Of a stretch of 64,000 bases of DNA, positions 4,609-8,815 are shown in pieces. Under the pieces are notes generated by a model, which was not told where the DNA came from, ran no database searches, and saw only the letters and a list, made by a program, of their open reading frames with translations. Source of the DNA: Alkalihalobacillus sp. AL-G (GTDB taxonomy: Bacteria > Bacillota > Bacilli > Bacillales > Fictibacillaceae); contig NZ_CP094656.1 in NCBI RefSeq assembly GCF_030643805.1, positions 3,534,001-3,598,000 of the forward strand. Direction: 5' to 3'. The translations under genes were made by a program, and so were the position numbers. The first letter of the stretch is position 1. Each line of letters opens with the position of its first letter.

Positions 4609-4917
4609 GTTTAAAAAGTAGACGAATCAGAATTTCTTATAAGAAGTTCGACTAAATACGTTACGTCCTGTAACAACTTCGAACTGACTCACTTCGTGTG
4701 AGCCCAAGGCACGACAGTTTCGAGGCAGGCTACTTACTTGAAGACATCATTGCTGCCTTGCACCGAGGAAGCATAGCATCGATAGCATCAACTAGTTAGA
4801 CGCAGGTGCACAATGATTTTCTTCTATGAACCATTCCAGCATCCTCGTAATACATGAGGACCGGAGAAACCGAGTAACGTAGAAATTCGCCGTTTATCAT
4901 TTGGATACTTTTTAAAC
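4609..4917. mobile_element. MITE-like element copy 1, between gpmI and eno
   Basis: The element is bounded by the perfect 12-bp terminal inverted repeats GTTTAAAAAGTA (4609-4620) and TACTTTTTAAAC (4906-4917). Its interior matches copy 2 (8451-8815) at about nine bases in ten by eye over some 240 bp, in the same orientation. It carries small inverted repeats such as GTTCGA...TCGAAC and CTCAC...GTGAG and has no plausible reading frame. The right repeat contains the gpmI stop codon. No target-site duplication could be recognised with confidence. A non-autonomous transposable element or a structured RNA repeat are both possible. Confidence 0.75.
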
Positions 4918-6450
4918 TTTCTTTATAAGTGTTTTTCCAGTCATCTCTTTCGGTTGCTTAGCTCTTAAAAGATCTAATATCGTAGGTGATAAATCAGCTA
5001 AAATTCCGTCTTCACGTAACTTCGCGTCCTTTTTCGTCACAATGACAGGTACGGGATTCGTCGTATGGGCTGTCATCGGGTTCCCATCCGGCGTAATCAC
5101 TTCATCCGAGTTTCCATGGTCGGCTGTTATGATCGCGGCCCCGTCCTTTTTAAGTAGAAGATCAACGACTTTCCCAAGACATTCATCAACGGCTTCGATC
5201 GCCTTTACGGTCGGCTCAAGTTTGCCAGAGTGCCCGACCATGTCTGGATTGGCGAAATTTAAAATAATCACGTCATGCTTGTCCGCGTTGATTTCTTTTA
5301 CGAGTGCATCGGTTACTTCATACACACTCATTTCCGGCTTTAGATCATAGGTTGCAACCTTAGGTGAATCAATCAAAATTCGCTCTTCACCAGGAAACTC
5401 CTTCTCGCGTCCGCCACTAAAGAAAAAGGTGACGTGCGGGTATTTTTCCGTTTCCGCAATTCGCAATTGGGTCAAGTTCTGCTGAGCAAGAACCTCGCCG
5501 AGTGTGTTATCAAGGTTTGCCGGCTTGAATGCGACTTCACCATCGACAGTTTCGCTAAAATGAGTGAGACAAACGAAATGAAGATCCTTCGGAAGCTTGT
5601 CTCCACGATCAAACCCACGGAAATCCTCATTCGTAAACACTTGTGAAATCTGGATTGCACGGTCAGGGCGGAAATTGAGGAAAATGATTGCATCGTCGTC
5701 CTCAATCGTCGCTACCGGTGAACCGTCCTCCTTCGTAATAACGGATGGGAGCACAAACTCATCATAGATTTCATTCTTGTAGGAATCCTCGACGACATCG
5801 ATCGGATCCTTATAGGAAGGTCCGTCACCGTAAACCATTGCCCGGTACGAACGCTCAACCCGATCCCAGCGCTTATCACGGTCCATCGAATAATAGCGTC
5901 CTGAAATCGTTGCAATATCCCCAACACCCAATTCATCCATTTTTTCCTGGAGCGCTGTAATATACGCCTTCGCAGTCTGCGGTCCTACATCACGTCCATC
6001 AAGAAAGCCATGAACATATACTTTCTCAACATGTTCGCGAGCCGCGAGCTTCAACAACGCATACAGATGATCAATGTGACTATGGATGCCCCCGTCCGAT
6101 AATAGACCGAAAACGTGGAGGGCTGAATCTTTCTTTTTTACATGATCCATCGCCTCATGAAACGTCTGGTTTTCATAAAACTCGCCTTCCTTGATCGAGA
6201 GGTTGACTCGAGTAAGACTCTGATAGACAACTCGCCCTGCACCGATATTCAAGTGCCCGACTTCAGAATTCCCCATTTGGCCGTCCGGTAGGCCGACCGC
6301 TTTTCCACTCGCTTCTAATTGCGCATGAGGAAACTCGTTCCAATAACGGTCAAAGTTCGGCTTGTTTGCTTGAGCGACCGCATTTCCCTTCGTTTCTCCT
6401 CGCATCGCGAACCCATCAAGAATGATGAGTGCGACTGGTTTTTTAGCCAT
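4912..6450 (-). CDS. gpmI: phosphoglycerate mutase, 2,3-bisphosphoglycerate-independent
   Basis: A 512-residue iPGM that converts 3-phosphoglycerate to 2-phosphoglycerate with two Mn2+ ions. It starts [14 protein letters not shown]; the metal-site motif [17 protein letters not shown] has the phosphoserine-forming Ser, and [17 protein letters not shown] and [10 protein letters not shown] give further metal and substrate ligands. The start is ATG 6448-6450, eight bases inside the end of tpiA, with GGAGGTC upstream. An 18-codon extension is open but lies inside tpiA. The last residue Val and the TAA come from the inverted repeat of the adjoining element. In sporulating Bacillus this Mn-dependent enzyme is pH-sensitive and is needed for growth and spore formation. 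Confidence 0.97.
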
Positions 6451-7204
6451 TATTAACGACCTCCAGCAATTGTAAAAACGATTGCGGCTTAAGACTGGCA
6501 CCACCGACTAACGCACCATCGATATCCGATTGGTTCATCAACTCTTCAATCGTTTCAGGCTTTACACTCCCGCCGTATTGAATCCGAACCTGCTTGGCCA
6601 CATCCTTTGAAAATTGTTCTCCAATAACGGTACGGATATACGCACATACTTCATTTGCGTCTTCAGATGTCGCAGATTTACCGGTTCCAATCGCCCAAAT
6701 CGGTTCATAAGCAACAACGACTTGTTTTACTTGTTCTTCAGACAGGCCGCTTAATCCTTGTTCGACCTGTGCCTTTACGACTGATTTCGTTTCTTTATTT
6801 TCACGTTGCTCAAGTGATTCACCGACACAAACAATCGGTACGAGATCATATTTGAAAGCGGCATGAACTTTTTTATTGACAGAGCCATTTGTTTCACCGA
6901 ACATCTCACGGCGCTCAGAATGACCGAGAATGACGTACTCTACATCCAAGTCCTTTAATGCGTGCGGACTGGTCTCTCCAGTAAATGCACCGCTTTCTTC
7001 ATAATGCATGTTTTGAGCCCCGATATGGAGCTTGGTCCCAGAAGTCTCGTCAACAAGTGCATTCAAAAATAACGCAGGGGCACAAACGACCGAATCAATC
7101 TTTTCTTCATCTGGAATAAGTCCGCTCACTTCTTTTACAAAGCTTTTCGCTTCTTCAAGCGTTTTGTGCATTTTCCAGTTTCCCGCGATAATCGGTTTGC
7201 GCAT
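6443..7204 (-). CDS. tpiA: triosephosphate isomerase
   Basis: A 253-residue TIM that interconverts dihydroxyacetone phosphate and glyceraldehyde 3-phosphate. Visible are GNWKMHKT with the substrate Lys, the electrophilic His in [13 protein letters not shown], the catalytic Glu in [16 protein letters not shown] and the phosphate-binding QYGGSVKPE and [10 protein letters not shown]. Length is normal. The ATG at 7202-7204 follows a GGGTGG site, 18 bases after pgk, and the gene overlaps gpmI by 8 bp, so the two are translationally coupled. Confidence 0.98.
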
Positions 7205-7222
7205 ATCCTAGATCCACCCTTT

Positions 7223-8407
7223 CTATTTATCTTGTAGTGCTGTTACACCCGGAAGCTCTTTTCCTTCCATAAACTCTAACGAAGCTCCGCCACCTGTTGA
7301 AATGTGACTCATCTTGTCTGCAAGCTGAAACTTTTCAACAGCTGCTGCTGAATCACCACCTCCGATGACACTGTATGTATCGGTTGCATCCGCTAGTGCT
7401 TTTGCTACGGAAATCGTCCCGTTCGCAAAGGCATCGAACTCAAACACGCCCATTGGCCCGTTCCATATCACAAGCTTCGAACCTTCAATGACTGTTCTGT
7501 ACTCATCTCGAGTAGCAGGACCTATGTCCAATGCTTCCCAATCAGACGGGATTTCATCAATGGGAACGACTTTCGTGTTTGCATCTTGAGAAAATTCATC
7601 TGCGACAACCGCATCTTTTGGTATATAAAATTTAACACCTTTTTGCTCGGCTTTTTCCATGAAGGATTTAGCGAGATCAATCTTATCTTCTTCTAACAAG
7701 GACTTCCCGATGTCATATCCGAGTGCTTTGACAAACGTATAAGCAAGACCGCCACCAATGATCAGGTTATCGACCTTATCAAGCAGGTTGTCGATCACCC
7801 CGATTTTATCCTTTACTTTGGCGCCACCGATGATTGCTGTAAATGGACGATCCGGATTAGACAGAGCTTTTCCAAGTACATCAAGCTCCTTCTCCATTAA
7901 AAGACCTGCAACACCAGGCAGGTGATGTGCGACCCCTTCTGTTGATGCATGTGCACGATGAGCGGCACCAAATGCATCGTTCACATAAAGATCAGCCATT
8001 TCTGCGAACGCTTTTGCGAGTTCAGGATCGTTCTTTTCTTCACCCGGTTCAAAGCGAACATTTTCGATCAGCAAAACGTCCCCATTCCCTAACCTTGAGA
8101 TCGCTTCGTTTACTTCATCACCATGTACTTGATCGGTTTTAATGACCGCTTTGTTAAGCAGATTGCTCAAACGCTCTGCAACAGGATCTAGCCGAAGCTC
8201 ATCAACCACTTCACCTTTAGGTCTGCCTAAATGGCTTGCTAAAATCACCTTTGCTCCATTTTCGGTCAAATGCTCGATTGTCGGAAGTGCAGCACGTATA
8301 CGAGTGTCGTCCGTCACCTCTCCATCCTTCATCGGAACGTTGAAATCGACACGGCAAAAGACTTTTTTACCGTTCACGTCCACATCGTGCAACGTCTGTT
8401 TTTGCAT
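7223..8407 (-). CDS. pgk: phosphoglycerate kinase
   Basis: A 394-residue PGK that makes ATP from 1,3-bisphosphoglycerate and ADP. Signatures are [20 protein letters not shown], the basic substrate patch [19 protein letters not shown], the hinge helix and the nucleotide loop [14 protein letters not shown] near the C-terminus. ATG 8405-8407 follows AAGGAGGC. Unlike in B. subtilis, about 520 bp with a repeat element and its own likely promoter separate it from gapA, so pgk-tpiA-gpmI-eno may be transcribed partly apart from gapA. Confidence 0.98.
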
Positions 8408-8450
8408 GCGGAAAGCCTCCTTAATGATAAGTTTAAGTTTTTAAAATAAT

Positions 8451-8815
8451 AGTTCAAAAAGTAGACAAATCAGAAAGATTAATATGAAGTTCGACTAAAG
8501 TCAACACGTCCTGTGATAACGTCGAACTGACTCACATCGTGTGAGCCCAAGGCACGACAGTTTTGAGGAAGGCTACTTGCTTGAAGACATCATTGCTGCC
8601 TTGCACCGAGGAAGCTTACATCGATAGCAACCACTAGTTAGACGCAGGTGCACAATGAATTTTCTTCACTGAACCATTCCAGCATCCTCGTAATACGTGA
8701 GGACCGGATAAACCGAGTACAAGAATAACCTACGGAAGCGGTACCTCGCACGAAGGAAAAGTGAACTTCTTTTTCAAGGAACGCAGAAATTTGCCGTTTA
8801 TCAACTTTTTGAACT
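8451..8815. mobile_element. MITE-like element copy 2, between gapA and pgk
   Basis: Perfect terminal inverted repeats AGTTCAAAAAGT (8451-8462) and ACTTTTTGAACT (8804-8815) enclose 365 bp. It matches copy 1 throughout, except for an extra stretch of about 60 bp near the right end (around 8718-8785). Compared with copy 1 the terminal repeats differ by a C/T change in one arm and the complementary G/A change in the other. No open reading frame of note. It carries a sigma-A-like promoter pointing to pgk. Confidence 0.75.
8476..8504 (-). promoter_or_regulatory. sigma-A-like promoter inside the repeat element, upstream of pgk
   Basis: On the minus strand TTGACT (8499-8504) and TAATCT (8476-8481) are separated by exactly 17 bases. 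It lies about 70 bases before the pgk start codon. The same region of copy 1 lacks the TTGACT hexamer. A prediction from hexamer match and spacing only. Confidence 0.5.

What the first reader, a model, noticed from the sequence alone, without database searches (positions are those of the whole stretch)
4609..8815. Two copies of a 300-365-bp element with covarying inverted ends bracket pgk-tpiA-gpmI
The sequence shows 4609-4917 and 8451-8815 to be close copies in the same orientation, each ended by perfect 12-bp inverted repeats. Copy 1 has TTTAAAAAG against CTTTTTAAA, copy 2 has TTCAAAAAG against CTTTTTGAA, so both arms changed together. That suggests selection for pairing, either as a transposase substrate or as RNA. 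B. subtilis has no such insertions in this operon. Inference: the elements may separate expression of gapA, pgk-tpiA-gpmI and eno by processing, termination or new promoters.
Basis: partly seen in the sequence, partly recalled or inferred. Interest (0 to 1): 0.7.

Follow-up and report, generated by a model that had tools for sequence, protein, structure and literature searches.

The report
Nested modular hairpin repeats, MITE-like
The two look-alike stretches around three sugar-burning genes belong to a large family of small, non-coding, hairpin-forming DNA repeats built from interchangeable parts, and one of those parts, an RNA motif of unknown function called Bacillaceae-1, is found in many related bacteria, even between ribosomal RNA genes, which suggests a spreading genomic passenger rather than an ordinary gene switch.

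Summary
Window 4609-4917 and 8452-8814 are 92.5% identical where aligned, lie in the same orientation and end in perfect inverted repeats. They are not a local duplication: blastn finds 64 matches in this 4.16-Mb genome (probably Pseudalkalibacillus). Both contain the Rfam family Bacillaceae-1 (RF01690), with 75 above-threshold copies here and matches in 102 of 199 sampled genomes of the order.

The elements (111-457 bp) are mosaics: GTTCAAAAAG/CTTTTTGAAC ends around a changing set of hairpin modules, some sitting in the loops of others. Orthologous gpmI-eno sites in two species keep the same ends while the inside differs. Bacillaceae-1 also lies inside rRNA operons (14 of the 75), with filled and empty operons in one genome.

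Arm covariation strengthens with more sequences (11 compensatory pairs in 360; 0 of 5000 shuffles reach this). Selection for pairing and palindrome correction both remain possible.

Best reading: a non-autonomous, modular mobile repeat family, here lying as structured spacers in the gapA operon. An effect on the operon is untested. A published CsrA-binding idea for Bacillaceae-1 is mostly not supported. General insertion into hairpin loops was tested and not supported, though single cases are exact. No mobilising enzyme was found.

The parts
4609..4917 (+). Copy 1 of the modular element, between gpmI and eno (Bacillaceae-1 strand antisense to the operon)
   Evidence: sequence; alignment with copy 2; genome matches
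4609..4620 (+). Left arm GTTTAAAAAGTA
4906..4917 (-). Right arm TACTTTTTAAAC; holds the gpmI stop codon (4912-4914 on the - strand)
4636..4702 (+). Bacillaceae-1 RNA motif (RF01690), 63.0 bits
4759..4810 (+). Hairpin module of the TGCACC...GGTGCA type (named Y here)
   Evidence: sequence; module counts
8452..8814 (+). Copy 2 of the modular element, between gapA and pgk (Bacillaceae-1 strand antisense to the operon)
   Evidence: predicted RNA fold closed by the arms on both strands
8452..8462 (+). Left arm GTTCAAAAAGT
8804..8814 (-). Right arm ACTTTTTGAAC
8479..8545 (+). Bacillaceae-1 RNA motif (RF01690), 66.5 bits
8602..8652 (+). Hairpin module Y
   Evidence: sequence
8719..8779 (+). Extra 61-bp module (W) absent from copy 1
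56163..56229 (+). Third Bacillaceae-1 motif of the window (47.3 bits), between two - strand ORFs
56168..56277 (+). Stretch around the third motif that resembles the elements by blastn

Best explanation
Both copies belong to a non-autonomous, non-coding, MITE-like repeat family. A unit bounded by paired ends (GTTCAAAAAG/CTTTTTGAAC plus conserved outer bases) sits in intergenic spaces, upstream of at least one gene in every case that could be classified. It carries a changing load of hairpin modules, chiefly the two-hairpin motif Bacillaceae-1, itself a module that spreads among different host repeats and rRNA operons. After insertion, modules are gained, lost or swapped at fixed sites, probably by recombination between dispersed copies and by insertion of one module into another. 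In the gapA operon the copies would be transcribed with the mRNA and fold into a multi-branched structure closed by the arms. Shown: modularity, copy number, patchy spread, filled and empty sites, content change at fixed sites, paired arms. Inferred: past transposition, recombination as the swap route, transcription, mild or no effect on the operon. Unknown: the mobilising enzyme.
For: 64 blastn matches and 75 above-threshold Bacillaceae-1 copies in one genome, 83 sites when pooled. 39 elements with both arms, 111-457 bp, in 30 combinations of scored modules and ends. Module X lies at a Bacillaceae-1 loop in 15 of 16 occurrences, in either hairpin. gpmI-eno: G000 (309 bp) and G001 (142 bp) share ends and flanks but differ inside. 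gapA-pgk: 363 bp in G000, 142-bp type in G006, arms only in G003, none recognised at that spot in G002 and G007. rrn: filled and empty operons within G000 and within G003. Patchy spread: 102 of 199 genomes, own included, 60 of 97 genera. Folds below shuffles, z -2.80, -3.15, -2.48.
Against: No target-site duplication of 3 bp or more abuts the arms, 0 of 39. No transposase with these ends was identified, and none was searched for specifically beyond Y1. Y1 transposases are not associated with Bacillaceae-1 (83 of 159 genomes with Y1, 19 of 40 without; Fisher p 0.60), and G095, with 24 listed copies (the listing limit), has none. No match in the plasmid or phage collections, so active spread is not shown. 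The strong orientation bias in this genome (26 against 5) and the compensatory arm changes are more than a purely inert parasite needs.
Confidence: 0.72

Rival explanations
1. The copies are operon regulators: transcribed hairpins that set mRNA processing or stability between gapA, pgk-tpiA-gpmI and eno, so pairing of the arms is under selection at these sites.
For: Paired arm changes at these very junctions: G006 GTTAAAAAAG/CTTTTTTAAC and G003 GTTTGAAAAG/CTTTTCAAAC at gapA-pgk, T-A at gpmI-eno in G000 and G001; arms close the predicted RNA fold; in B. cereus a repeat in the transcript (bcr3) correlates with mRNA half-life (PMC3446304, passages read).
Against: Junctions differ between sister species: the gpmI-eno spacer is 31 bp in G003 and 46 bp in G005, and no copy was recognised at the gapA-pgk spot in G002 and G007, although G007, like G004 and G006, has one nearer gapA. 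Dozens of other sites carry the element. No promoter- or terminator-like site in the copies.
Confidence: 0.2
2. The covariation comes from correction of imperfect palindromes by template switching during replication, not from selection for a hairpin.
For: Changes come as matched pairs, with a matched shift of both arms at one site (1808930); inverted repeats are known substrates of such correction (recalled).
Against: 17 one-sided changes persist beside the 11 double ones, so correction is not complete; the arms of a 100-460 bp element are far apart for a fold-back switch (inference).
Confidence: 0.35
3. The reverse strand of Bacillaceae-1 is a CsrA-binding RNA (GGA in the hairpin loops), as proposed in PMC4333381; the copies would then bring CsrA sites into the glycolytic mRNA.
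For: Published motif match on the reverse strand (passages read). In this genome 26 of 31 co-directional elements have that strand as sense, both window copies included, and in other genomes of the genus 11 of 15 (my count). The genome has two PF02599 matches.
Against: Outside the genus no such bias, 6 against 9 (my count). The rrn copies read have the other strand as sense. The second loop reads NTCGT, losing GGA, in 27 of 106 scored strings. 3 of 10 genomes without csrA carry Bacillaceae-1.
Confidence: 0.08
4. Only two copies exist, made by local duplication.
For: They are the only two full copies in the window and 92.5% identical where aligned.
Against: 64 matches genome-wide; copy 1 has an orthologue with different contents at the same site in G001.
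Confidence: 0.01

Closest known systems
Bacillaceae-1 RNA motif, Rfam RF01690 (seen as a table entry in PMC2864571, one passage)
   Same: Both copies contain a full-length match far above the gathering score.
   Different: Rfam files it as a gene of the sRNA type and a 2022 review table gives no function (PMC9029176, passage); here it is one module of larger repeats, nested, dispersed and found on both strands relative to genes.
BOX elements of Streptococcus pneumoniae (PMC3049150; abstract, one section and passages read)
   Same: Short, intergenic, modular (boxA-boxB-boxC), terminal inverted repeats, foldable RNA, size range 67-637 bp.
   Different: BOX varies mainly by boxB number; here several different modules are nested and exchanged, one of them shared with rRNA operons and other repeat families. 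Sequence relation was not tested.
GC clusters and double-hairpin elements of fungal mitochondria (PMC4478555, PMC2800124; passages read)
   Same: Small hairpin or double-hairpin mobile DNA, found also in rRNA, merging and shuffling, different forms at the same site in different strains.
   Different: Mitochondrial; sequences not compared. Mobility there rests on population data, here only on comparison of species and of paralogous rrn operons.
bcr1-bcr18 repeats of the Bacillus cereus group (passages in PMC3446304; primary papers not read)
   Same: Intergenic Bacillus repeats, some MITE-like, often transcribed inside operons.
   Different: Sequences were not compared here; nesting of modules was not mentioned in the passages seen.
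REP elements with RAYT transposases (PMC3733652; passages read)
   Same: Short palindromic repeats, often in pairs, high copy.
   Different: Bacillaceae-1 is not associated with Y1 transposases here; the unit of this window is longer and modular.

Membership tests
Bacillaceae-1 RNA (RF01690) | Covariance-model match at or above the gathering score of 35 bits | tested here: met
   63.0, 66.5 and 47.3 bits in the window
MITE (miniature inverted-repeat transposable element) | Short, non-coding, many dispersed copies | tested here: met
   111-457 bp in 39 elements, 64 matches. Mechanical ORFs overlapping elements are at most 103 aa, except one of 203 aa that runs through the 142-bp copy at 2986686; that ORF has a further Met after the copy, so the overlap may be only an extension
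MITE (miniature inverted-repeat transposable element) | Terminal inverted repeats | tested here: met
   39 elements with both arms within one mismatch each, from 69 starting points
MITE (miniature inverted-repeat transposable element) | Target-site duplication | tested here: inconclusive
   None of 3 bp or more abutting the arms in 39; outer conserved bases suggest that the true ends lie beyond the arms; neighbouring copies share TTTTAA-like bases, but no clean empty site was resolved
MITE (miniature inverted-repeat transposable element) | Autonomous partner with the same ends | not tested
   No targeted search made
RAYT/Y1-mobilised repeats | Association with a Y1 transposase | tested here: not met
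   Bacillaceae-1 in 83 of 159 genomes with Y1 and 19 of 40 without; G095 has 24 listed copies and no Y1
CsrA-sequestering RNA | GGA in both hairpin loops of the transcribed strand | tested here: not met
   27 of 106 second-loop strings lack it; the rrn copies read have the other strand as sense
CsrA-sequestering RNA | Binding to CsrA | not testable with these tools
   needs a bench assay
Intrinsic terminator or promoter element | Terminator-like or sigma-70-like site in the copy | tested here: not met
   None of the 9 sites found in 4400-9000 lies in either copy; simple consensus scan only

The most novel reading that the evidence does not exclude
Bacillaceae-1 and its companion two-hairpin modules are a class of bacterial mobile double-hairpin elements that seek folded nucleic acid and insert into hairpin loops: of rRNA spacers, of 5S rRNA gene copies, of other repeats and of each other, building Russian-doll structures by an RNA- or single-strand-based route with an unknown enzyme.
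Probability: 0.18. Interest if true: 0.85.

Novelty: new variant of a known kind. Interest (0 to 1): 0.58.

Why it matters
An Rfam family described in 2010, without an assigned function in a 2022 table (PMC9029176, passage) and with one CsrA-binding proposal (PMC4333381, passages), is better explained on this evidence as a spreading modular repeat. That would change the annotation of about half of the sampled genomes of the order and would caution against reading Bacillaceae-1 hits as regulatory sRNAs. The family offers ready-made filled/empty pairs inside rRNA operons and operon junctions, so two questions become testable: how tiny hairpin DNAs move without a visible transposase, and whether structured RNA loops are preferred targets. 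If confirmed it would be a bacterial counterpart of the double-hairpin and GC-cluster elements of fungal mitochondria.

Tried and rejected
Local duplication: rejected. Insertion into hairpin loops as a general rule: tested twice. Duplex energy of the two flanks gave p 0.53 for 64 own-genome loci and p 0.009 for 29 of 36 other loci (7 skipped as truncated), the latter carried largely by one host repeat of G003 and G007. Folding the flanks after removing the guest gave a mean of 14.3 spanning pairs against 13.7 in shuffles and 12.8 at random positions, for 32 loci, one per genome (p 0.34 and 0.22). Not supported in general. Of five kinds of filled/empty comparison, three place the guest in a loop (X in Bacillaceae-1; ITS of G000 and 5S copy of G027) and two do not (16S leader of G000, in a stem; 23S-5S spacer of G003, replacing one stem arm).

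CsrA sponge: weakened. Y1 transposase as mover: no association. Plasmid or phage carriage: no match at the default limit. A guessed empty form of the GCGGGAAAAGC host repeat: 0 hits in G003 and G007 with up to 3 mismatches. Target-site duplication: not resolved. Literature searches for a prior description of nested or mobile Bacillaceae-1: (8 of 10 allowed); none of the passages I read describes it. The library lacks most subscription papers, so this is weak evidence of novelty.
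Full report
WHAT IS THERE. The copies share 273 of 295 aligned bases; copy 2 has 61 extra bases and lacks 7 near its right end. Rfam scanning of the whole window gives three matches, all Bacillaceae-1 (RF01690), one in each copy and one at 56163-56229. The Bacillaceae-1 strand is antisense to the operon in both copies.

COPY NUMBER. The window lies in G000, a single 4,155,898-base contig. Copy 2 has 64 blastn matches there at E 0.001 or better, and RF01690 has 84 matches at E 1 or better, 75 of them over the gathering score; pooled within 700 bp they form 83 sites. 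In the collection of named genomes the 22-base left end is found exactly in 19 stretches, all of Pseudalkalibacillus decolorationis DSM 14890 (records of the window's own genome may be left out there). That the window comes from this genus is my inference from that result. NCBI places the genus in Bacilli, order Caryophanales.

ANATOMY. From 69 starting points, 39 elements with both arms within one mismatch were retained (the other 30 lacked one arm or repeated a listed pair). They are 111 to 457 bp. The shortest hold the arms and one Bacillaceae-1; longer ones add modules. Scored with loose patterns, the 39 show 30 different combinations of modules and end types. Three 142-bp copies have no Bacillaceae-1. 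Bases outside the arms are conserved too, about TTTTAAAATRTGT before the left arm and WWCCTYT after the right one, so the true ends probably lie beyond the arms. No duplication of 3 bp or more abuts the arms in any of the 39.

NESTING. Module X (GCGCC..GGCGC type) occurs 16 times in the own-genome stretches held; by my reading of that list 13 lie at the loop of the first Bacillaceae-1 hairpin, 2 at the loop of the second, and 1 in a broken copy. Several loci show a Bacillaceae-1 inside another, for example 2801443 and 2989109.

SAME SITE, DIFFERENT CONTENTS. All 8 genomes of the genus held were read at both operon junctions. gpmI-eno: G000 has the 309-bp form and G001 a 142-bp form with the same arms (GTTTAAAAAG/CTTTTTAAAC) and closely similar flanks; G002 has a related copy, G004 and G006 degraded ones, G003 and G005 spacers of only 31 and 46 bp, and G007 a different 370-bp spacer. 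gapA-pgk: G000 363 bp; G006 a 142-bp type with GTTAAAAAAG/CTTTTTTAAC; G003 only the arms, GTTTGAAAAG/CTTTTCAAAC; G001, G004 and G005 what I read as remnants; none recognised at that spot in G002 and G007. G004, G006 and G007 have a further repeat of this kind nearer gapA. The pgk-tpiA spacer is 18 bp in G000 and carries related sequence in several relatives. Content is therefore replaced at fixed sites.

ARM COVARIATION. In this genome 2 of 39 elements have a two-sided change. For a wider test, arms were located from inner anchors without looking at pairing: 68 anchored pairs, 36 kept because each arm was recognisable on its own. The 32 dropped are printed; they include chance anchors, some covarying sites whose arms are shifted by a base or two, and by its flank copy 2 of this window. 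In 360 arm pairs there are 11 compensatory changes, 17 one-sided changes and 2 two-sided unpaired ones; dealing the right arms anew gives a mean of 1.17 and a maximum of 8, with 0 of 5000 at 11 or more. The 11 come from 7 sites: three from one shifted site (1808930), three from one G005 site, and two from an orthologous pair in G004 and G006, so there are fewer independent events than 11. Selection for pairing and palindrome correction both fit.

PLACEMENT. With a simple ORF caller, 37 of 39 elements could be classified: 26 between co-directional ORFs with the Bacillaceae-1 strand antisense, 5 with it sense, 6 between divergent ones, none between convergent ones (26 against 5, p 0.0002; neighbours in the window are convergent in 9 of 56 pairs). 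In 61 loci of other genomes, 7 too short to use, the counts are 17 against 13, with 24 in other classes; by my split 11 against 4 within the genus and 6 against 9 outside it. The polarity thus seems to belong to this element group, not to Bacillaceae-1.

RIBOSOMAL OPERONS. Of the 75 above-threshold Bacillaceae-1 copies, 14 lie in rrn operons by position and sequence: 5 before 16S, 3 after 16S, 6 before 5S (11 of the 14 were read directly, the other 3 by their distance to 5S). In G000 one ITS copy (L085) has an 86-base module exactly between GAAC and GTTC where two other operons have TTT. The seventh 5S (L289) lacks the Bacillaceae-1 that precedes the other six, though its spacer differs in other ways too. 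In G003 one operon (L290) is empty after 23S where two (L069, L217) hold Bacillaceae-1; one locus each of G002, G005 and G007 has it at that place. In G027 a second, altered 5S copy has Bacillaceae-1 where the intact one has the loop of GGGGC-ATT-GCCCC. Of 30 5S loci searched, one per genome, 6 gave a Bacillaceae-1 hit, one of them (L290) about 0.6 kb beyond 5S. Insertions at different positions of the same spacers in different species argue for movement.

SPREAD. RF01690 matches occur in 17 of 40 genomes, own included: all 8 of the genus, 1 of the 16 others of the family, 8 of 16 from other families. In a wider sample they occur in 102 of 199 genomes of the order, own included, and 60 of 97 genera (that run lists at most 24 matches per genome). 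The B. subtilis control also has it. The motif sits in several different-looking host repeats. This patchiness fits a mobile module.

LOOP TARGETING, TESTED. Two tests over many loci do not support a general rule (numbers in Tried and rejected). Some single cases are exact, others are not. I keep it as the novel case, not as the finding.

FUNCTION. Both strands of copy 2 and the operon-sense strand of copy 1 fold better than shuffles (copy 2 z -2.80 sense and -3.15 antisense, copy 1 z -2.48), with the arms closing the whole fold. No promoter- or terminator-like site lies in either copy. PMC4333381 (passages) proposes that the reverse complement of Bacillaceae-1 binds CsrA and reports that its discoverers were not confident of the strand. 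For it: that strand is the sense one in 26 of 31 own elements. Against it: the rrn copies read have the other strand as sense, 27 of 106 second-loop strings lack GGA (only the eight commonest strings were printed, 113 motifs entered), and 3 of 10 genomes without csrA have Bacillaceae-1, against 99 of 189 with it (Fisher p 0.21). BSGatlas (PMC8208703, passage) lists 8 Bacillaceae-1 structures in B. subtilis. I recall that the family has been described as lying near rRNA operons; I did not see this in a call.

VERDICT. A known kind of thing (a MITE-like repeat) in an unusual, strongly modular form, which recasts an orphan RNA family as a mobile module. Effects on the glycolytic operon are possible, unproven, and the copies are not conserved in all sister species.

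Noticed in passing
window about 8826-8925, - strand: Between gapA and pgk a block recurs in all 8 genomes of the genus read (AAAAACTGTACC, TATATAGAATGT or close, then a GGGGAGGGG..ACTCCTC-like hairpin with a T-rich tail), independent of the repeat; perhaps a better candidate for control of pgk than the repeat.
   Followed up: partly
L085 (G000:C1:193202-195868) against L081 and L096: An 86-base two-hairpin module sits exactly in the GAAC-TTT-GTTC loop of the 16S-23S spacer in one rrn operon of the same genome.
   Followed up: yes
L284 (G027), about 1835-1990: Altered second 5S rRNA gene copy with Bacillaceae-1 at a hairpin loop, downstream of an intact 5S.
   Followed up: partly
L070 and L087 (G000 16S leaders): About 60 extra bases with two hairpins inside the second Bacillaceae-1 hairpin of two 16S leaders; three other leaders lack them.
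   Followed up: partly
L206, L209, L218, L221, L224, L237, L239, L249, L256: Another hairpin repeat (GCGGGAAAAGC...GCCCGCGG style) hosts Bacillaceae-1 at different positions, and in L237 in the opposite relative orientation, in different genomes.
   Followed up: partly
L174 (G004), L175 (G006), L177 (G007): The gapA-pgk spacers of these relatives carry a further repeat of the same style nearer gapA, in G004 and G006 with another arm variant (GTTCAAAAT/ATTTTGAAC); their pgk-tpiA spacers carry more.
   Followed up: no
G000:C1:2480490-2480942 and around 2368462: Neighbouring elements share TTTTAA-like bases at their junction, a possible hint at the target sequence.
   Followed up: no
L152 (G000:C1:2985900-2987600), 715-1323: A mechanical 203-aa ORF runs in frame through the 142-bp copy at 2986686; a downstream Met suggests that the real gene starts after the copy.
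   Followed up: partly
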